Positions 501 through 15,443 of a stretch of DNA of 20,543 nucleotides are shown one piece after another. The stretch covers positions 1-20,543 of IMG/VR virus record IMGVR_UViG_3300028423_000153. One strand, 5' to 3'. Below the pieces are notes generated by a model. The model searched no databases, had not been told where the DNA came from, and was given only the letters and a program-made list of their open reading frames with translations. Source of the DNA: a virus. The stretch's first letter is position 1. Each line of letters starts with the position of its first letter. Position numbers and translations under genes: made by a program.

Positions 501-2027
501 ATGAAAAATGAAGTCGTCTCAGAACTAGACTATGTAGATGTAGATGCGGTTCTAACTAAGTTCATAGCTATATCCGATAAGAACTCATTTAAGTATGATA
601 ACGGAATTCGATTAAAAGAAAAGGTTGTTATCACTCTAAAAGAATATCTTGCATTGATGAAGGCTGGTTATGTTGTAAAATCTATCAAAACAAACCGACC
701 AGATGTAAACAAGCTTGAAAAAAAACAAGGTATTATAGAGACCTTGTTTATAGGTGACGACTTACCAAACCTATGCACATCAATTTACTATAAGAATGGC
801 ACAGTTGAGATTCGAGTGACAGATGGTGGTCACCGCACTCGCTCTTTTGAAGAGTTTGTATATGACCTATTCTGTCTATCTCATAAGGCTTTCTTTGTGA
901 ATGACTTTGGTAAAGAGACAGCTTTGCATAGTATGAGTGCCTCCGATATTCGTGAAACACATCCTAAAGCTTGGAGCAACTTCATGAATGAAGAGTTGAC
1001 GTTTACTGTGTATCATAACTCTACACCAAATCAAGATGCGCGTGAGACACAAAACCGCAACAAAGGTTCGAACCACAATGCACAAGAGCAACGCAACACT
1101 CTTGATGAAAACGTTGTGTCCGAATTTGTTCGCAATATATGCCGTGTTGTAGAAGAAGAAAACAACACTCCTCATCCTCTATTTGATCAAAAAGTTATTG
1201 GGTTTTCGCTAGGTCGTCTCAAGTATGACGAGGCTTTGACACGTTTGATGCTAATGATTGAAAAGAAAGACCCTTCTATCGCTATCGATAACGATTCTAT
1301 GGATGAGTTTTTTGAAAGTGGGTCAATTCAAGATCGTGGTCGTCTTTTTGTCAAAGAGAGTGATTTTAACTCTATCGTTAAAGATACCGTAAAAATGCTA
1401 GATACGTGTTATGAGATTTATTCTAACTATCCAACTGGATTGAAAATCGAAGGTGCAAAGAAAGGTGCATCTAATTTCACTGCATTGACTCGTTTTCTAA
1501 TGAAGATTGAATCAGAGCTGTTTCCTCTTCAGCAAGAAGCAGTTATTGTAGACTATGAAAAGTTCGCAAAGTCCTTTGCGGAAATGCTTGAAGTTATCTA
1601 CACTGACAATGAATTGCGTGACTGGATTGGCACTGGTGAGTGGCCAAAGGCTAAAGCTTTTGGTAAGTATCTAACACAGTTCAATGTTGTTAAAAAGACT
1701 AACTGGACTATCAAATGGATGATGGACGTGTTTGCAGACCGTTATGAGGACTTTGGTATCATGCGTGTTGATAAACGTTCTTCATTTCGCCCACAAGATA
1801 TCTTTGAACGTTACGTTGCGGTAAACAAGTGCTGTGAAGCATGTGGTGCTAACGTTGACCAAAAAGATGTTCAAGGTGACCACGACATTCCACGTTCTTG
1901 GGGTGTTGAAGCTGGTGGTGTGACAGAGAAAGGCAATCTTCGTATTCTTTGTGCAAATTGTAACAACAAAAAGTCTAACAAGCACGCCTTTGATGAATTT
2001 GTAAAAAGCCTAAAGGAGATTGCATGA
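501..2027 (+). CDS. DUF262-like N-terminus with C-terminal HNH endonuclease domain
   Basis: A 508-residue protein. Around residues 108-116 it has DGGHRTRSF, which resembles the DGxQR(x)Tx signature of DUF262/ParB-like nucleotidase domains in GmrSD-type enzymes. The C-terminus is a zinc-coordinating HNH module: CEAC (445-448), DHDIP with the likely catalytic His461, GNL, then CANC (484-487) and a final His. The DUF262 plus HNH arrangement is known in modification-dependent restriction enzymes and many phage-borne nucleases. In a phage it could degrade host DNA, exclude other phages or act as a mobile nuclease; the sequence does not decide. The gene overlaps the next by ATGA at 2024, so the two are probably translationally coupled. 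The middle 300 residues show no motif I recognise. Confidence 0.72.
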   Translation: MKNEVVSELDYVDVDAVLTKFIAISDKNSFKYDNGIRLKEKVVITLKEYLALMKAGYVVKSIKTNRPDVNKLEKKQGIIETLFIGDDLPNLCTSIYYKNGTVEIRVTDGGHRTRSFEEFVYDLFCLSHKAFFVNDFGKETALHSMSASDIRETHPKAWSNFMNEELTFTVYHNSTPNQDARETQNRNKGSNHNAQEQRNTLDENVVSEFVRNICRVVEEENNTPHPLFDQKVIGFSLGRLKYDEALTRLMLMIEKKDPSIAIDNDSMDEFFESGSIQDRGRLFVKESDFNSIVKDTVKMLDTCYEIYSNYPTGLKIEGAKKGASNFTALTRFLMKIESELFPLQQEAVIVDYEKFAKSFAEMLEVIYTDNELRDWIGTGEWPKAKAFGKYLTQFNVVKKTNWTIKWMMDVFADRYEDFGIMRVDKRSSFRPQDIFERYVAVNKCCEACGANVDQKDVQGDHDIPRSWGVEAGGVTEKGNLRILCANCNNKKSNKHAFDEFVKSLKEIA

Positions 2028-4925: not shown

Positions 4926-5873
4926 ATGACTAATGTGAATGACTTTCTGTGGGTCCAAAAATATCGTCCTAAGCGCGTTGAGGAAACGATTCTACCTTCT
5001 TCTACAAAGAAGATGTTTCAAAAATTCGTAGACGAGCGCAATATTCCAAACCTAATTCTAACTGGTCGAGCGGGCATTGGTAAAACAACCGTTGCCAAAG
5101 CAATGCTCGAAGAGATCAACGCTGACTACATTACGATCAACGGTTCGATGAACGGAAACATTGATACTCTTCGTCACGAGATCGCAAACTTTGCATCTAC
5201 CGTTTCTTTCTCAGGTGGTCGTAAGTATGTAATTCTTGACGAAGCTGACTATCTAAACGCCAATTCAACGCAACCAGCACTTCGAAACTTCATGGAGGAA
5301 TTTTCGAAAAACTGTGGGTTCATTCTTACTTGCAATTTCAAAAATCGAATTATCGAGCCTCTACACTCACGCTGCAGTGTTATCGAATTTAGCATCGGTA
5401 AAAATGATAAAGCGAAAATCGCTTCTCAATTCTTCAAAAGAGTGACATGGATTCTCGACCAAGAAAACGTCGAGTATGATCAAAAAGCTGTAGCAGAACT
5501 GATTCAAACATATTTTCCTGACTGGAGACGAGTTCTAAACGAACTTCAACGTTATTCTGCGACTGGGAAAATTGATGCTGGTGTTCTTGTTAACAAGTCT
5601 AACGACTCGATTAAAGAACTAATCGATATGATGAAAAGTAAGAGTTTCACTGGAGTTCGAAAGTGGGTGTCGGAAAACACCGACATCGATAGTGCAATTC
5701 TCTATAGAAAACTATATGACGTTCTTCCTCAATATCTTGACTCAGCCTCAAGCGTTGCTGATGCAATTATCATTCTTGCTGAGTATCAATACAAGGAGGC
5801 GTTTGTAGCTAACAGCGAAATCAATCGTGTTGCTGCTCTTGCAACAATTATGGCGGAGGCTCAGTGGAAGTGA
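4926..5873 (+). CDS. 44: Clamp loader large-copy ATPase subunit (gp44)
   Basis: A 315-residue AAA+ ATPase, close to T4 gp44 (319). It begins with the RFC-type 'WVQKYRPKRVEE' box, then Walker A GRAGIGKTT (residues 47-55), Walker B VILDEAD (102-108), a sensor-1 region 'FILTCNF' and the arginine-finger motif SRC (148-150) in LHSRC. In T4, four gp44 and one gp62 open and load the gp45 ring at primer ends. The ribosome site AAGAGGTG lies about nine bases upstream of the ATG. The stop overlaps the next start (TGATG at 5871-5875). Confidence 0.95.
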   Translation: MTNVNDFLWVQKYRPKRVEETILPSSTKKMFQKFVDERNIPNLILTGRAGIGKTTVAKAMLEEINADYITINGSMNGNIDTLRHEIANFASTVSFSGGRKYVILDEADYLNANSTQPALRNFMEEFSKNCGFILTCNFKNRIIEPLHSRCSVIEFSIGKNDKAKIASQFFKRVTWILDQENVEYDQKAVAELIQTYFPDWRRVLNELQRYSATGKIDAGVLVNKSNDSIKELIDMMKSKSFTGVRKWVSENTDIDSAILYRKLYDVLPQYLDSASSVADAIIILAEYQYKEAFVANSEINRVAALATIMAEAQWK

Positions 5874-6436
5874 TGCTTTATTTTAATGATGAAGGTGTTC
5901 TAGTAAAAGACGAACTAATCGACCCGGACAGTGAATTTAGAAAGATTGTAAGACGTTCAAATGGTATGTTTGATGTCGTTTCTCGGATAGATACCTCTAG
6001 AGCGATATGGCTATTTAATTCAAATGGAAAGAAATCCAATATTCATAAAAATACTGGGTTTTATGTGTTATATGGACCGGAACTCGTTGGGCCTGCTACT
6101 TTTAACATGAGAAAATATATCTCATATTATGTCGGTTATGCTGGGTGCACTAACACGATAAACACTAGATTGGGGCGCTTTATTGCTCATCTTAAGGGTG
6201 AAAATACAGAAAACGAAACTCATCAAGCGGCTAATAGGCTTCGAGAAATTTTATCTTTCTATGATATGCGAGCTCCTATTATAATGTCGAATAGCCTTCG
6301 CGTAAAAGTCTATCCCTATCATATTGACGAGTGGATGGAAAGAGCAAAATACGCTAAAGAACATGACGCTTGGAGAAGTATTGAAATACCTTTCATTAAA
6401 CATTTTAGACCAAAACTTAATAAGAAGGTTTATTGA
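5873..6436 (+). CDS. GIY-YIG family endonuclease, probably a free-standing mobile nuclease
   Basis: A 187-residue protein starting at the ATG that overlaps the gp44 stop. GTG 5864 in frame would extend into gp44 and is less likely. The catalytic domain shows GFYVLYG (GFY 62-64), YYVGYAG (YVG 86-88), R102 in GRFIAHLKG and E171 in IEIPFIKHFRPKLN, which are the four conserved elements of GIY-YIG nucleases. The domain is in the middle to C-terminal part, with about 60 unassigned residues in front. It sits between genes 44 and 62, which are adjacent in T4, so it is best seen as an intruding homing endonuclease. Its codons and spelling (more AT-rich, more ATA/AGA) differ slightly from gp44. Confidence 0.75.
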   Translation: MLYFNDEGVLVKDELIDPDSEFRKIVRRSNGMFDVVSRIDTSRAIWLFNSNGKKSNIHKNTGFYVLYGPELVGPATFNMRKYISYYVGYAGCTNTINTRLGRFIAHLKGENTENETHQAANRLREILSFYDMRAPIIMSNSLRVKVYPYHIDEWMERAKYAKEHDAWRSIEIPFIKHFRPKLNKKVY

Positions 6437-8634: not shown

Positions 8635-9642
8635 ATGTCTTTCTATACTTCTGTTCAGAGATATGGTAACAATATTCTTTTTCGAGGATACGACAACAAA
8701 GGCAATCGTATTCACAAAAAGTTTAAGTTCTCTCCTACATTCTATCTACCTTCAAACAATCAAGAGTGCGACTGGACTGCTCTTGACGGAACTCCCGTAA
8801 AACCAATTCAACTCGATACGATGAGTGAAGCCAAAGAGTTTCTTGAAAAGTATAGTGACGTAGACAACTTTAACATCTACGGAAATACTAATTACGTAGC
8901 TCAGTTCATTCAAGAAGCTTATCCTGGCGAAATCGAGTTTAATTCCAACTTCATTCACGTCGGTAACTTCGACATTGAAGTTGCGTCTGATGAAGGATTT
9001 CCTCATCCTGAAAGTGCTTCGTATCCAGTCATCTCCATTGCTTACAAAAACAGCGTCAATAACATTTATTACGTTTGGGGGTTGGGTGACTATGACGCGA
9101 ATAAGACAGAGTTGGATCTAAAAGATCACATGATTCGTTATGTGAAGTGTCGCTCTGAAGCAGAACTTCTACAGAAGTTTGTGGTGTTCTGGGAAAACAA
9201 CACCCCAGACATCATTACAGGTTGGAATATCCGTCTGTTTGACATACCCTATCTTGTGAATCGAATCGCTAAAGTGTGCGGTGAAAAGACACAGAAGGCA
9301 TTGTCACCCTGGGGTGTCGTCAAATATCGTCAGATTAGCGTCAAAGGCAAGAGTCTGGATGCTTATGAGATTTATGGCGTAGCCCAGATGGACTACTATG
9401 ACCTATTTCAAAAGTTTGGGTATACGTATGGTAACCAAGAATCATATGCGCTAGATCATATCGCGCATGTAGTTTTGGGTGAGAAGAAGCTTTCTTATGA
9501 AGAGCACGGAAATTTATTCAACTTATTGACTAGCAAATCGAGGAAGATTGAAGTTGACAATACTAAGTCTAAAGAGAAGATGGCGGCTTTTGAGAAGTGG
9601 TGTTTGCTAAGAGATAATATAGGGAAAAAGTTGGGCAAATAA
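8635..9642 (+). CDS. 43A: DNA polymerase gp43, N-terminal part (43A): exonuclease domain with Exo I and II
   Basis: A 335-residue family B polymerase fragment. Exo I is D113-I-E115 in NFDIEVAS; Exo II is NIRLFD with D203 in ITGWNIRLFDIPYL; the conserved block YALDHIAHVVLG follows. The frame stops at 9640-9642, before Exo III (YxxxD), which lies in the downstream ORF at 10379. Together the two ORFs total 918 residues, against 898 for T4 gp43, so little or nothing is lost. The last few residues (about from 9609 on) may be non-native sequence. Split gene 43 is known in some Aeromonas T4 relatives with a mobile endonuclease gene between the parts. Whether the halves assemble as two chains or are spliced is not decided here. 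Confidence 0.88.
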   Translation: MSFYTSVQRYGNNILFRGYDNKGNRIHKKFKFSPTFYLPSNNQECDWTALDGTPVKPIQLDTMSEAKEFLEKYSDVDNFNIYGNTNYVAQFIQEAYPGEIEFNSNFIHVGNFDIEVASDEGFPHPESASYPVISIAYKNSVNNIYYVWGLGDYDANKTELDLKDHMIRYVKCRSEAELLQKFVVFWENNTPDIITGWNIRLFDIPYLVNRIAKVCGEKTQKALSPWGVVKYRQISVKGKSLDAYEIYGVAQMDYYDLFQKFGYTYGNQESYALDHIAHVVLGEKKLSYEEHGNLFNLLTSKSRKIEVDNTKSKEKMAAFEKWCLLRDNIGKKLGK

Positions 9643-9664
9643 TACCCTCCCAAGTCCCAGATAT

Positions 9665-9672
9665 TATAAATA
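9665..9672 (+). promoter_or_regulatory. T4-type late promoter for the HNH gene
   Basis: TATAAATA exactly matches the T4 late promoter -10 sequence read by gp55. It lies 40 bp before the HNH ATG. The other HNH gene (minus strand, 14356) has an equivalent element, which supports it. In T4, intron-borne homing nucleases are also late-transcribed. Confidence 0.65.
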
Positions 9673-9711
9673 ACATTATAATATTTGAGACGATATCAGG
9701 AGGAGATTTAG

Positions 9712-10428
9712 ATGTATCTGGACAACAAATATACCAAGATATATTATCAATTGGTCGAAAGGGGTTTAAGTAGAGAATCGGGTGCTGATAGTATTTACTA
9801 TGAAAAGCATCACATAATACCAAGGTCTTTGGGTGGATCAGACGACGATGATAACTTGATGTATTTGCTTCCCAGAGAACATTATGTCGCTCATCATCTT
9901 CTCACAAAAATGGTAGAAGGGACGGAAAAATCTAAAATGACTTTCGCACTACATACCTTTTTTCATTTCAACAAATATAGAAGACTCAACTTCACCGCAA
10001 GACAATACGAGTATCACAAAAAAGAGTTCGCTAAGGCGTGTAAATATAGAGTTCCGAAAACGAAATCCGATGTTTATAGTTTTAAGCATAGAGAGACATT
10101 AGAAGAATTTGTAGGAACCATATACGAATTTCATAAACATAGCGGTCTATCTCAGCAGGAAGTCAATTTTCTGCGAGTTGCTGCCGAAGATGAAGCGTCT
10201 ACGACTAGATGGATAAAAAATTGGGGGGTTTGGGTTGATGAGTTGCAAGATTGGTCTTATAATAAGAGAAAGAAACCTAGTAGACAAACTCCTGTGATAT
10301 GCGAGCACTGTAATAAAAGTGTGTCGCCTGGAAATTATTCGAGGTGGCACGGAGATAATTGTAAGGAAGTAGATATCGATGGACACTATGCGAGAACTAG
10401 ACAGGTTGCTAGAATCAGCAAGCGTTGA
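9712..10428 (+). CDS. HNH homing endonuclease inserted in gene 43
   Basis: A 238-residue protein with good ribosome site AGGAGG seven bases before the ATG. The nuclease motif is H33-H34 in KHHIIPRSLGGSDDDDNL with N48, then the last His at EHYVAHH (57-62). A C-terminal C2HC knuckle (C197, C200, H213, C217) in ICEHCNKS...RWHGDNC is typical of DNA-binding tails of phage HNH enzymes. The frame runs 50 bases into the start of the second polymerase ORF, so the last dozen residues may be non-native. It resembles the HNH at 14356: both share 'HHI.P...GGSD...NL.YL...EH..AH....KM'. Its role would be to cut gene 43 of related phages lacking the insert. Confidence 0.85.
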   Translation: MYLDNKYTKIYYQLVERGLSRESGADSIYYEKHHIIPRSLGGSDDDDNLMYLLPREHYVAHHLLTKMVEGTEKSKMTFALHTFFHFNKYRRLNFTARQYEYHKKEFAKACKYRVPKTKSDVYSFKHRETLEEFVGTIYEFHKHSGLSQQEVNFLRVAAEDEASTTRWIKNWGVWVDELQDWSYNKRKKPSRQTPVICEHCNKSVSPGNYSRWHGDNCKEVDIDGHYARTRQVARISKR

Positions 10429-12130
10429 TGAATTACTCGAAATGGATTTAGATCGTTTCACCCGTGACGAGTTGGAATATTTATTTGATAGAGTCCAAAC
10501 CAAGGCAGATGATGTGTGCTACAGTCTTGGAATCGACTATAACATTCGAGATGTCCAGCTTGTAGATGAAATCGATAAGCAGACCGGTCTACTTGATCTA
10601 GGTCTAACGATTGCATATAAAGGTGGTGTCAACTATCCAGATGTTTTCGGAACAACTGGTATTTGGGATAGCATTACATATCGTTATTTGAGCGACCGCA
10701 AGATTGCAGTGCCACAGCCAGAACACAAAGAAAAAGGAGATTATCCAGGTGGCTACGTGAAAGAGCCGATCACGGGTATGAACGAGTGGGTTGTGTCTTT
10801 CGATCTTAATTCACTGTATCCGAACTTGATCGTGCAGTATAACATGTCACCTGAAACACTTCTCAAAAGTCCTGCTGATATGCTTCCGAGTGGTGTTGAC
10901 TTCTATCTTGAAAATGGTCTTCATCCTTCGGTGCACGAAAGAAACGTATCTGTGGCAGCGAATGGGTCTTGTTATCGTAAAGACGTGAAGGGATTTATCC
11001 CCGAGATTATTGTAAATCTATACGATGAAAGAAAGACCGTCAAAAAGCAAATGCTCGAAAAGAAGCAGGAATATGAAAAAAACAAATCTCCAAATCTAAA
11101 TAGAGATATTACACAACTAGACAACCGCCAAATGGCAGTAAAAATCCTTTTGAATTCACTTTATGGTGCACTTGGGAATAAATATTTCCGTTATTTTGAT
11201 CTACGAGTAGCAGAGGCAATCACACTATCTGGTCAGCTTTCGATTCGCTGGGCTGAAAAGGCGATGAATGATTCGTTGAATAGTATTCTCGGTACAGATG
11301 GTGAGGATTACGTGATTGCAATTGATACGGACTCTCTCTATGTCAATATGAAACCACTTGTGGATAAAGTTCAACCAAAAGATCCTGTATCGTTTCTCGA
11401 CAAAGCGTGTGAGCAAAAGTTCGAACCTATTCTCGAAAAGGCTTATCAAAAGCTATTCGAAAAAATGAATGCGTATGAAAATCGAATGGTCATGGCAAGA
11501 GAGGCAATTGCAGATCGTGGAGTGTGGACGGGTAAAAAACGTTACATTCTCAACGTTCATAATAACGAAGGTGTTCAGTATACAGAACCGAAACTCAAGG
11601 TCATGGGACTTGAAGCAGTTAAGTCTTCAACCCCTCAGATCATTCGAGACAAGTTCGAAGAAGCATATCGAATCATTCTAACTGGCGAAGAAAAAGACCT
11701 TCATAAGTTCGTCGCAGACTTTGAGAAGCAGTTCAAATCTCTTTCACCAGAAGAAGTATCGTTTCCTCGAGGTGTGTCTGAGATCGATAAGTGGAAAGCT
11801 GGGTCTGACATTTACAAGAAAGGGACGCCAATTCACGTTAGGGGCGCTTTGCTTTTCAATTGTAAAGCTAAAGAGCTAGGTTTAGATCGAAGCGTTGAGT
11901 TGATCAAGAATGGCTCTAAAATCAAGTTCTGCTATCTAAAAACGCCAAATCCGCTTCGTGAAAACGTTGTGTCTTTTCCACAGTATCTTCCACGTGAAAT
12001 GGGGCTAAACGATTACATCGATTACGATAAACAGTTTGACAAAGCGTTCAAGGAACCACTTCGTCTTGTCACGGACGCGATTGGTTGGAACCTAGAACAC
12101 ATTAATACAATTGAAGATTTCTTTGTATGA
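10379..12130 (+). CDS. 43B: DNA polymerase gp43, C-terminal part (43B): Exo III, palm, fingers and thumb
   Basis: A 583-residue fragment. Exo III is Y54-N-I-R-D58. Polymerase motif A is FDLNSLYP (D142), motif B is K255-x3-N259-SLYG, and motif C is D316-T-D318-S. The C-terminus ends 'NTIEDFFV', plausibly the clamp-binding peptide (T4 ends LDFLFG). The start at ATG 10379 has AAGGAAG (10363-10369) nine bases upstream, so it can be translated alone; ATG 10388 is an alternative. The first 45 residues are charged and helical. Upstream of 10373 the frame is closed by TAG at 10370. Domain content means this chain has polymerase activity residues but lacks two of the three exonuclease motifs. Confidence 0.92.
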   Translation: MDTMRELDRLLESASVDELLEMDLDRFTRDELEYLFDRVQTKADDVCYSLGIDYNIRDVQLVDEIDKQTGLLDLGLTIAYKGGVNYPDVFGTTGIWDSITYRYLSDRKIAVPQPEHKEKGDYPGGYVKEPITGMNEWVVSFDLNSLYPNLIVQYNMSPETLLKSPADMLPSGVDFYLENGLHPSVHERNVSVAANGSCYRKDVKGFIPEIIVNLYDERKTVKKQMLEKKQEYEKNKSPNLNRDITQLDNRQMAVKILLNSLYGALGNKYFRYFDLRVAEAITLSGQLSIRWAEKAMNDSLNSILGTDGEDYVIAIDTDSLYVNMKPLVDKVQPKDPVSFLDKACEQKFEPILEKAYQKLFEKMNAYENRMVMAREAIADRGVWTGKKRYILNVHNNEGVQYTEPKLKVMGLEAVKSSTPQIIRDKFEEAYRIILTGEEKDLHKFVADFEKQFKSLSPEEVSFPRGVSEIDKWKAGSDIYKKGTPIHVRGALLFNCKAKELGLDRSVELIKNGSKIKFCYLKTPNPLRENVVSFPQYLPREMGLNDYIDYDKQFDKAFKEPLRLVTDAIGWNLEHINTIEDFFV

Positions 12131-12386: not shown

Positions 12387-13439
12387 ATGTCTCTAATTGA
12401 TAAGCTACAAAAATCAGGTGCTGTTAAACACACATCTGTTCTTTCCGAATCTACTTACTTTAATGTTAAAGAAAGTGTTCCCACTGACATTCCTATTATC
12501 AACTTAGCATTATCAGGTCAACTTAATGGGGGGCTTACTTCAGGATTGACCTTTTTAGCGGGGGAATCCAAAAGTTTCAAGTCTCTCCTGGGTTTGATGA
12601 TGGTTAAGGCATACTTGAAAAAACACGAAGATGCAGTATGTCTGTTCTATGATAGCGAGTTTGGAACTACGCCTGGATATATTGAGACTAACGGTATCGA
12701 TCCTAATAGAGTGCTACATATTCCAATTGAGCATCTAGAACAGTTGAAATTTGACATTTCAAAAAGACTTGATGCTATCGAAAGAGGAGATAAGGTTATC
12801 ATCTTTGTTGATTCTGTAGGTAATCTTGCATCTAAAAAAGAGGTGGATGACGCTCTCGACGGAAAATCCGTTGCGGATATGTCAAGAGCAAAAGTAATGA
12901 AATCTCTTTGGAGAATCGTTACACCAAATCTAACAACTAAAGACATTCCGTGTGTTGCCATCAATCACACATACCAGACTATGGAGCTTTATAGCAAAGC
13001 GGTGATGTCTGGTGGTACAGGTGGAATGTATTCAGCAAATCAGGTATTCATCATCTCAAAGGCCCAAGAAAAGGATGGTAAAGAGTTGAATGGATATAAG
13101 TTTACAATTAACATTGAAAAGTCTCGTTATGTGCGAGAAAAATCTAAGTTTCCGTTTACAGTTCTTTTTGAAGATGGTATAAACAAGTGGTCTGGATTGC
13201 TCGATATTGCTATTGAAGGTGGATTTGTTGTAAAGCCTTCTATGGGGTGGTATTCTAAAGTCGACCCAGAGACAGGTGAGATTGAAGATAAAAAGTATAG
13301 AGCAAAAGACACAAACAACTATAATTTCTGGGAAAGTATTCTTACTAGTAAAGAGTTCCAGGAATATGTTAAAGACCGATATCAAGTTGGTAGAAATGAG
13401 CTTATGAAAGATGAAGAAGAGGTAGATACACAAGAATGA
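12387..13439 (+). CDS. uvsX: UvsX RecA-like recombinase
   Basis: A 350-residue protein. Its Walker A, GESKSFKS (59-66), matches T4 GPSKSFKS, and AVCLFYDSEFGTTPGYI, SKKEVDDALDGK.VADM and CVAINHTYQT (T4 CIAINHTYET) are near-identical blocks. VIIFVDSVGNLASKKE carries Walker B. It forms filaments on ssDNA and drives strand invasion for recombination-dependent replication. It is shorter than T4 UvsX (391) because the acidic C-terminal tail is reduced (ends DEEEVDTQE). ATGA overlap at 13436 couples it to the gp41 fragment. Confidence 0.95.
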   Translation: MSLIDKLQKSGAVKHTSVLSESTYFNVKESVPTDIPIINLALSGQLNGGLTSGLTFLAGESKSFKSLLGLMMVKAYLKKHEDAVCLFYDSEFGTTPGYIETNGIDPNRVLHIPIEHLEQLKFDISKRLDAIERGDKVIIFVDSVGNLASKKEVDDALDGKSVADMSRAKVMKSLWRIVTPNLTTKDIPCVAINHTYQTMELYSKAVMSGGTGGMYSANQVFIISKAQEKDGKELNGYKFTINIEKSRYVREKSKFPFTVLFEDGINKWSGLLDIAIEGGFVVKPSMGWYSKVDPETGEIEDKKYRAKDTNNYNFWESILTSKEFQEYVKDRYQVGRNELMKDEEEVDTQE

Positions 13440-14125
13440 TCGAAAACACAATTCTTTCAGCACTTATTTACAACGAAGACTACACAAGAAAGGTTATCCC
13501 TTTTCTCAAAGAGGAGTATTTTCATGATCTAGCTGAAAAGAAGTTGTTTAATACCGTAACTGATTATGTCGAGAAATACAACGGGCTTCCTACTAAGGAA
13601 GCCCTACATCTTTCTTTGAGTGAGGATAGTAAACTAAACGAGTCAACTTATGAACAAGTCACAAAACTGATTGATTCTCTCGAATACGATGAGAAAACCG
13701 ACGTAAACTGGTTGTCCGAGAAGACTGAAAAGTTTTGTCAAGACCGTGCTATCTATAATGCTGTTCGAAAGTCAATCACGATCCTCGATGGAGACGAAAA
13801 GCAGCTAGACAAGGGCTCAATTCCCGAACTTCTATCAGATGCTCTAGGTGTGTCTTTTGACACTAATATTGGTCATGATTTTCTTGAAGGGTTTGCAGAA
13901 CGCTTCGAGTTCTATCATACTAAAGAGCATAAAGTGCCTTTTGATCTAGAGTTGTTCAACAAAATCACTAAAGGTGGAATATCTATTAGACCTCTTTTGG
14001 GTTTCGATACCTCTTTTACTCCATTCTATTCTGTCTTCTTTTGTAGCACCATGAAATCCGATGTTATTTTCGTGACACCATTTACCTATTTTTCTACGAT
14101 ATTCTACATTAAGATTGGCGCCTAA
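13436..14125 (+). CDS. 41A: Replicative helicase gp41, N-terminal part (41A), interrupted before Walker A
   Basis: Helicase homology covers about residues 1-181 (to about 13978): 'ENTILSALIYNEDYTRKV..FLKEEYF' (T4 VEIILSHLIFDQAYFSKVWPYMDSEYF), 'GHDFLEGFAERFEFYHTKEHKVPF' and NKITKGG (T4 GHDWMDDYEARW..., VPFKLRILNKITKGG). The frame then runs antisense through the HNH gene to a stop at 14125, giving 48 residues without helicase character. In T4 the next segment carries AGVNVGKS, the ATP-binding P-loop; it is not in this frame nor anywhere nearby. As written this piece would be an N-terminal domain only. Start ATG overlaps the uvsX stop. Confidence 0.82.
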   Translation: MIENTILSALIYNEDYTRKVIPFLKEEYFHDLAEKKLFNTVTDYVEKYNGLPTKEALHLSLSEDSKLNESTYEQVTKLIDSLEYDEKTDVNWLSEKTEKFCQDRAIYNAVRKSITILDGDEKQLDKGSIPELLSDALGVSFDTNIGHDFLEGFAERFEFYHTKEHKVPFDLELFNKITKGGISIRPLLGFDTSFTPFYSVFFCSTMKSDVIFVTPFTYFSTIFYIKIGA

Positions 14126-14356
14126 CATATTCATTGCTCTCAAGTCATTAATGTTTTTATGCATTTTCCATAACATAAAGTGCGCTAAAATATGCTCTTT
14201 AACAGTTAAATACGTTAGATTCGATTCATGATCACTACCACCTGCATGTTTTGGTGTTATATGGTGTTTATGTAATTCCGATCCTGGTTTGTAGGATTCT
14301 TTCAATGCTTTTCCGCGTTGACAAAGGTTGTGATAAGTGTTATGATAAATAGACAT
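13946..14356 (-). CDS. HNH endonuclease within gene 41, opposite strand, probably truncated
   Basis: A 136-residue protein read leftward, with AAGGAGA eight bases before its ATG. HNH motif: H31-H32 in HKHHITPKHAGGSDHESNL with N46, then EHILAHF (H55, H59). 'IGKWCHENNIGFHGATKEDRIEWSKRG' is a continuation common in intron-type phage HNH enzymes, which normally run on for some tens of residues. Here the last 15 or so codons (RYSTFSDFVEQL) are the antisense of the helicase KITKGG region, so the native C-terminus seems lost at a junction near 13980-13990. It has its own late promoter at 14418-14425. The catalytic motif is intact, so activity is possible. Confidence 0.8.
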   Translation of the reverse strand: MSIYHNTYHNLCQRGKALKESYKPGSELHKHHITPKHAGGSDHESNLTYLTVKEHILAHFMLWKMHKNINDLRAMNMLGANLNVEYRRKIGKWCHENNIGFHGATKEDRIEWSKRGIETQKRSNRYSTFSDFVEQL

Positions 14357-14417
14357 GCTGGAAATCTCCTTCTACGTTTCTAGTGTGTGTGGGGACTGCC
14401 ATCCCGCGACACACGTC

Positions 14418-14425
14418 TATTTATA
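14418..14425 (-). promoter_or_regulatory. T4-type late promoter for the minus-strand HNH gene
   Basis: TATAAATA on the minus strand, 62 bases before the HNH ATG. Exact match to the T4 late consensus and parallel to the element before the other HNH gene at 9665. Confidence 0.6.
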
Positions 14426-14510: not shown

Positions 14511-15443
14511 ATGAAAATCAGCAATGAGTGGACTGAAGCTAACGTTAGTATTTCAGAAGTTCAAAAACTGCTAGATCAGGGATATGAGGTTGAAGTTGAT
14601 AGCCCAGATGGCTATGTTCCTGTAAACTATTTTGTTGATAAAGGTCAATACGATGAATATGTCTTTGAGGGTGATGATGGTGTTAATATTAGATGCAATC
14701 ATAGACATTTGAATCTGCTTGACGTAACTCTTGACGATCTGGAACTTTTGACGAGAGAAGCTTATACGAGCCGCATTGGACGTGTAAAGTCTCGAACAAC
14801 CGGTAAGTTAGTGATCAAGGAGTATCCAACTACTACTGCCGGCGCTGCTCACTTTAGACATCTACTCAACGAACTTCGCTTGAAAAAGAACTTCACGCCA
14901 GATATCGTCTATATTGATTATCTAAATATTTGCACTAGTTCTCGTCTTCGCTATGGTGCAAACGTAAATTCATACACTCTTGTCAAATCAATTGCAGAAG
15001 AGCTGCGTGGTCTAGCTGTTGAGTTTAATGTTCCAATCGTGAGTGCAACCCAGACAAATCGAACTGGTTATACAAGTTCTGATGTTGGTCTGGAAGATAC
15101 ATCAGAATCATTTGGTCTTCCTGCTACTGCTGACTTCATGTTTGCGATGATATCTACAGAGGAGTTGGAAGAACTCGGTCAAGTGATGGTTAAACAGCTA
15201 AAAAATAGATGGGGTGATATTAGTAACCCGAAAAGATTTGTGGTTGGTATTGATCGATCTAAGATGAGGTTGTTTGATGCGGAAGATTCTGCACAAGAGG
15301 GTCTAATGAAAGATGGCAACACTTCGCCTAAGCAAGCAAAAAGTGACTCCGTGATGGATAACAGTGATTTCGGCGAAAGGCTTGAAGACGAGATTCGAGG
15401 AGCTCATCGTAGAAAAAAACCCAAGTTTGAAGGGTTAAACTAA
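14511..15443 (+). CDS. 41B: Replicative helicase gp41, C-terminal part (41B), with intein-like N-terminal segment
   Basis: A 310-residue protein from ATG 14511, with AGGAG (14499-14503) seven bases upstream. Residues 1-67 are not helicase: 'ISEVQKLLDQGYEVEVDSPD', GYVPVNYFVDKG and DGVNIRCNHRHL look like the first half of a Hint/intein domain, including a block-B-like 'DG..IRC..H'. From residue 68 (LLDVTLDDLELL) the protein follows T4 gp41: VIKEYPTTTAGAAHFRHLLNELRLKKNF, Walker B region IVYIDYL, 'SIAEELRGLAV', TQTNRTGY, SFGLPATADF and QLKNRWGD. The roughly 50 residues between KITKGG of 41A and this point, with Walker A, are absent. A longer frame to 14355 is rejected since it crosses the HNH start with no ribosome site. 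Confidence 0.85.
   Translation: MKISNEWTEANVSISEVQKLLDQGYEVEVDSPDGYVPVNYFVDKGQYDEYVFEGDDGVNIRCNHRHLNLLDVTLDDLELLTREAYTSRIGRVKSRTTGKLVIKEYPTTTAGAAHFRHLLNELRLKKNFTPDIVYIDYLNICTSSRLRYGANVNSYTLVKSIAEELRGLAVEFNVPIVSATQTNRTGYTSSDVGLEDTSESFGLPATADFMFAMISTEELEELGQVMVKQLKNRWGDISNPKRFVVGIDRSKMRLFDAEDSAQEGLMKDGNTSPKQAKSDSVMDNSDFGERLEDEIRGAHRRKKPKFEGLN

What the first reader, a model, noticed from the sequence alone, without database searches (positions are those of the whole stretch)
14511..14711. Intein-like segment fused directly to the helicase C-terminal part
Residues 1-67 of the second helicase ORF look like the first half of a Hint domain (GYVPVNYFVDKG, then DGVNIRC..H) with no intein C-terminal half or 'HN' splice junction before helicase sequence starts. 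Fractured gp41 genes joined by split inteins, with endonuclease genes between the halves, are known from marine metagenomes. This could be a degraded form of that arrangement, or an unusual split intein whose partner is elsewhere.
Basis: partly seen in the sequence, partly recalled or inferred. Interest (0 to 1): 0.72.

Follow-up and report, generated by a model that had tools for sequence, protein, structure and literature searches.

The report
Broken split-intein piece in phage helicase
A virus's DNA-unwinding helicase gene has lost its ATP-binding core, and in its place sits a fragment of a self-splicing protein element plus part of the DNA-cutting gene that spreads it; this is most likely the scar of a failed jump, and a sequencing chimera is not excluded.

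Summary
Residues 1-67 of the second gp41 ORF (14511-14711) are the first half of the C-terminal fragment (IntC) of an atypically split, VidaL-like intein. In 81 of 81 distinct related viral contigs this IntC is complete and runs into Walker A (HN|TGVGK). Of these, 70 also carry the ~16-aa IntN on gp41-N and 60 carry an antisense HNH gene between the halves. The window lacks IntN, the IntC second half with the HN junction, the C-terminal part of the HNH gene, and 51 helicase codons including Walker A. None of these parts occurs elsewhere in the 20.5-kb record. Trans-splicing and helicase activity therefore cannot come from these genes as read. The helicase extein groups with intein-free phages, so I favour one abortive homing event that joined an incomplete 727-bp donor block into the cut gene. 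Two separate deletions, or a library or assembly chimera, remain possible. Side finding: the HNH gene starts with a late promoter and a two-hairpin leader that covaries strongly across 74 sequences. The leader precedes both HNH and GIY-YIG homing-endonuclease genes, and no Rfam 15 family matched it in 15 sources scanned.

The parts
13436..13984 (+). gp41 (DnaB-like helicase) N-terminal part, 183 codons, ends at ...FNKITKGGIS
   Evidence: PHROG 19 E 1e-37; up to 69% identical to intein-free gp41
13985..14125 (+). non-homologous tail of the gp41-N ORF, read through the antisense HNH gene; no IntN here
13946..14356 (-). antisense HNH homing endonuclease ORF, 136 aa; residues 1-124 (13985-14356) match relatives, C-terminal part lost
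   Evidence: PHROG 655 E 1e-16, residues 4-87 match profile positions 29-106 of 343; 53-64% identity; relatives L002 and L014 are 214 and 210 aa
14418..14425 (-). T4-type late promoter box TATAAATA for the HNH gene
   Evidence: present upstream of 35 of 38 distinct HNH copies; 0.018 expected per 120 nt
14385..14414 (-). leader hairpin P1 (6-bp stem, CGC/C internal loop, 4-bp stem)
   Evidence: covariation; R1 hit 14379-14420, E 2.6e-10 (window was in the training set)
14361..14380 (-). leader hairpin P2 around the Shine-Dalgarno GGAG (14369-14366); here GAAA/UUUC
   Evidence: read from sequence; helix 3 covaries across relatives
14511..14711 (+). first 67 residues of a VidaL-like IntC, fused to the helicase
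14712..15443 (+). gp41 C-terminal part from NLLDV; Walker A and the rest of the 41 codons after the intein site missing
   Evidence: PHROG 19 E 2e-51 from residue 68

Best explanation
The segment is a dead piece of a VidaL-like split intein. An intein-free T4-like gp41 was cut at or near the intein site inside the Walker A loop (AG|TG). The broken ends lost 30 nt on the left and 123 nt on the right, and an incomplete copy of the donor cassette was joined in: HNH residues 1-124, its leader, and IntC residues 1-67, 727 bp in all. The result cannot trans-splice (no IntN, no HN end) and cannot make an ATPase from these genes. SHOWN: identity of the pieces, what is missing, and the grouping of the extein with intein-free relatives. 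INFERRED: the cut, the resection, the end joining, and that it was a single event.
For: Intact homologues have complete IntC and Walker A at the same insertion point in 81/81 distinct contigs. Window gp41 lacks exactly RKxLxxALAG-TGVGK...ERIDA, 10 + 41 codons around the intein site, compared with intein-free relatives. gp41-C groups with 7 intein-free sequences (support 0.93) and sits in a 40-tip clade with 38 intein-free and one intein-bearing member. All pieces are clean up to the joints, without stops, with pN/pS below 1, so the event is recent. One event accounts for loss at both recipient ends and both donor ends. In the same contig an HNH gene of the same PHROG interrupts DNA polymerase with loss of about 11 codons.
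Against: gp41 is essential in T4 (own knowledge), so a genome with this lesion should not thrive; that favours an artefact or a defective minority. No other viral contig found has the joint, and near-identical records may be hidden by the tools. The intein-free set was collected by similarity to the window's own helicase, which biases the tree. Nothing distinguishes one event from two deletions at the DNA level.
Confidence: 0.5

Rival explanations
1. Two separate deletions in a phage that had the complete split-intein helicase: about 330-375 nt from gp41-N into the HNH gene, and about 300-330 nt from mid-IntC into the helicase.
For: Relatives with the complete arrangement exist and the distances between the joints are regular (N side 328-376 nt where HNH abuts IntN, C side 300-330 nt).
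Against: Needs two independent events that each cross an intein/extein or gene border; the nearest helicases are intein-free.
Confidence: 0.2
2. Library, amplification or assembly chimera: the virus population holds an intact helicase and the joints are artificial.
For: An intact replicative helicase would be expected in a live phage; the joint was not found in any other viral contig; all 81 relatives are intact.
Against: A graph-based chimera needs a shared k-mer, and the two sides of each joint have no evident common stretch (compared with relatives); the IntC-gp41 joint is in frame.
Confidence: 0.27
3. A working unusual split intein or three-piece helicase whose missing parts are encoded elsewhere.
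For: Only 20.5 kb of the genome is held, so other parts cannot be seen.
Against: The N-half ends in antisense HNH sequence, not IntN; the C-half lacks HN and is fused directly to helicase 41 codons past the splice site; no missing part is in the window; no relative shows such an arrangement.
Confidence: 0.02

Closest known systems
VidaL split intein (PDB 6vgv/6vgw)
   Same: Split after about 16 residues; the IntC profile alignment runs over residues 20-141 of the chain. A 2026 paper gives a 16-aa VidaL IntN with the split just after strand beta2 (PMC13014065).
   Different: The window keeps only the first half of IntC and has no IntN.
Fractured gp41 genes with split inteins (Dassa et al. 2009; paper not held, cited in PMC13014065)
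   Same: gp41 in two genes with intein halves and an endonuclease gene between them (own knowledge of that paper); complete split form in 70 relatives here.
   Different: Here the splice parts and Walker A are lost. The relatives found here use the VidaL-like split and an antisense HNH gene at the Walker A site.
Genes-in-pieces phage enzymes (Aeh1 nrdA/mobE, gene 43 of Aeromonas phage 25; PMC2988022)
   Same: A homing-endonuclease gene splits a replication gene.
   Different: Those split enzymes keep function; here the ATP-binding core of the helicase is missing.
T4 I-TevI / Aeh1 mobE late promoter with RNA hairpin (PMC2988022)
   Same: A late promoter and an RNA structure lie directly upstream of a homing-endonuclease gene.
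   Different: The leader here is one conserved two-hairpin motif shared by HNH and GIY-YIG genes, with the Shine-Dalgarno inside P2; no Rfam match.

Membership tests
VidaL-like atypically split intein | IntC N-terminal part homologous to VidaL/Hint | tested here: met
VidaL-like atypically split intein | short IntN starting with Cys on the N-extein | tested here: not met
   absent from the gp41-N ORF and from all six frames; best frame score 20.7 against 58-64 for true IntN
VidaL-like atypically split intein | C-terminal block ending HN before Ser/Thr/Cys | tested here: not met
   missing
VidaL-like atypically split intein | splicing activity | not testable with these tools
   needs experiment; not expected
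gp41 / DnaB-like replicative helicase | N-domain and RecA-like C-domain homology | tested here: met
   PHROG 19
gp41 / DnaB-like replicative helicase | Walker A P-loop | tested here: not met
   51 codons including TGVGK missing
HNH homing endonuclease | HNH motif | tested here: met
   Pfam HNH above its cut-off, 23.1 vs 21.4 bits
HNH homing endonuclease | complete C-terminal part | tested here: not met
   124 of about 210 residues retained
I-TevI-type regulated leader | late promoter plus RNA structure next to the RBS | tested here: met
   (sequence evidence only)
I-TevI-type regulated leader | upstream arm that hides the start codon only in read-through RNA | tested here: inconclusive
   TAAATA upstream in 65/76 and TATTTA after the start codon in 59/76; flanking pairs do not covary

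The most novel reading that the evidence does not exclude
The HNH gene inside this scar carries a structured leader RNA (late promoter, 10-bp interrupted hairpin P1, 4-bp hairpin P2 enclosing the Shine-Dalgarno). It is a shared, exchangeable control element of unrelated homing-endonuclease families (HNH and GIY-YIG) in uncultured T4-like phages, not described before, and the scar itself is a frozen failed homing event.
Probability: 0.4. Interest if true: 0.65.

Novelty: new variant of a known kind. Interest (0 to 1): 0.45.

Why it matters
If real, the locus records what happens when homing of a split intein fails: the helicase gene is destroyed and pieces of the invader remain. That bears on how costly such elements are to phages. 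The search also shows that VidaL-like split inteins with an antisense HNH gene at the gp41 Walker A site are common in uncultured phages, with both split and contiguous forms. The shared leader suggests unrelated homing endonucleases exchange one regulatory module.

Tried and rejected
(1) IntN-like peptide CGDCHPATHVYLYK at about 14384-14425: score 6.8 against 58-64 for true IntN; the YLYK part is the promoter box read in frame. (2) Missing parts elsewhere in the window: none. (3) Group I intron or other known RNA in the window: no credible Rfam hit. (5) Intein in cellular genomes: one weak partial hit. (6) Single-sequence PDB hits to ankyrins and DARPins: weak repeat-type matches, not followed. 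(7) Pairing of TAAATA with TATTTA (P0) in the leader: no covariation in the flanking pairs.

Full report
1. What is in the window. The record is a single 20,543-base virus contig with T4-like replication genes. gp41, the replicative helicase, is in two pieces: an N part (13436-13984, PHROG 19 E 1e-37) and a C part (14712-15443, PHROG 19 E 2e-51). Between them lie an antisense HNH endonuclease ORF (13946-14356) and the 67-residue segment of the finding (14511-14711), which is in frame with the C part.

2. Identity of the 67 residues. They match 14 viral loci at 57-63% identity. In these loci the sequence continues as a full IntC of 124-131 aa ending ...NHRYYTNGVSSHN|TGVGKSLFMC. With a wider scan using the IntC alignment there are 81 distinct contigs in all. 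All 81 have the complete IntC end followed by Walker A: 70 have gp41-N ending ...AG|CVHPxT..., 6 are contiguous inteins, 5 have no N half in the held stretch, and 60 have an antisense HNH gene between the halves. The IntC profile matches VidaL (6vgv, E 4e-13), gp41-1 and other mini-inteins. VidaL is an atypically split intein with a 16-residue IntN (PMC13014065). Pfam and NCBIfam barely see this family: nothing for the 67 aa in Pfam, and TIGR01443 below its cut-off for L002.

3. What is missing. Against intein-free relatives the helicase lacks RKxLxxALAG (10 codons) and TGVGK...ERIDA (41 codons), including Walker A. Against intein-bearing relatives the window also lacks IntN, IntC from residue 68 to HN, and the C-terminal part of the HNH gene; the corresponding stretches in relatives are 328-376 nt (N side, where HNH abuts IntN) and 300-330 nt (C side). 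None of the missing pieces, nor an IntN, is elsewhere in the window. The retained pieces are homologous up to the joints, without stops, and show protein-level constraint. The events are therefore recent or artificial.

4. Mechanism. The gp41 extein is nearest to intein-free phages: L016 83%, L018 80% identity in the C part. In a tree of 91 sequences it groups with intein-free relatives, in a 40-tip clade with a single intein-bearing member, which is probably L157. The intein-free set was chosen by similarity to the window, so this is suggestive, not decisive. A single abortive homing event explains the loss of both recipient ends around the AG|TG site and of both donor ends of the 727-bp block. 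Two deletions, or a chimera, are the main rivals. The strongest argument for a chimera is that the helicase should be essential (own knowledge). The exact joint was not found in other viral contigs, but near-identical records may be hidden.

5. The HNH leader. A T4-type late box (TATAAATA) lies 69 nt before the HNH start and is present before 35 of 38 distinct HNH copies. It is followed by a hairpin, P1. On seven sequences 7 of 10 pairs change on both sides. The covariance model also finds it before genes not used to build it: in L161; in L178, whose HNH gene sits at another site; and before a GIY-YIG-like ORF in L111. The 80 loci returned were searched with the model; 95 hits had E at or below 2e-5, and nearly every locus had one. 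The number of pattern matches expected by chance was not measured, and the pattern fixes a few P1 bases. The strongly covarying pairs (columns 12-39, 13-38, 20-33, 21-32, 22-31) and all of P2 lie outside the fixed bases. On 74 distinct leaders 93% of cells pair, 12 of 14 pairs change on both sides, and the covariation score is 0.63 against 0.20 in shuffles and 0.12 or less in slid versions. P2 encloses the Shine-Dalgarno. Among the 73 downstream proteins scanned, Pfam matches include NUMOD3 (29), HNH (16), GIY-YIG (10), HNH_3 (7) and SegE-type GIY-YIG (4); classes overlap and some proteins have none. No Rfam family matched the leader in the window or in 14 loci. One isolate carries it before a GIY-YIG-like gene: Variovorax phage V45v66. 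Late promoters and RBS hairpins of T4-type endonuclease genes are known (PMC2988022); one conserved leader shared by HNH and GIY-YIG genes was not found in the papers searched. Its function is inferred, not shown.

6. Verdict. It is a non-functional remnant. Scores: remnant identity about 0.97; unable to splice about 0.95; single abortive homing event about 0.45.

Noticed in passing
window 14357-14425 (minus strand); L178:2926-2967; L111:6310-6349; L302:2491-2532; loci L182-L261: A structured leader (late promoter, hairpin P1, hairpin P2 around the Shine-Dalgarno) with strong covariation precedes homing-endonuclease genes of HNH and GIY-YIG type; no Rfam 15 match in the sources scanned.
   Followed up: partly
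window 8635-12130: DNA polymerase (gp43) is split by an HNH gene of the same PHROG (655) at 9712-10428, preceded by a late box at 9665. About 11 codons before IDYNIRDV are missing and both halves carry tails (roughly 40-50 aa) without relatives in the collections searched.
   Followed up: partly
L114, L116, L117, L152, L156, L157: Contiguous (unsplit) forms of the same gp41 intein, with IntN and IntC joined, which may help date the split.
   Followed up: no
window 501-2027 and 5864-6436: Two further possible mobile nuclease genes: a 508-aa protein with a C-terminal HNH region, and a 190-aa ORF that reads like GIY-YIG (no PHROG hit).
   Followed up: no
L009:2450-3968: UvsX of a relative is itself split by another intein (GGGCVIAGTKIQLADG... 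/ ...HYVLENGVVTHN).
   Followed up: no
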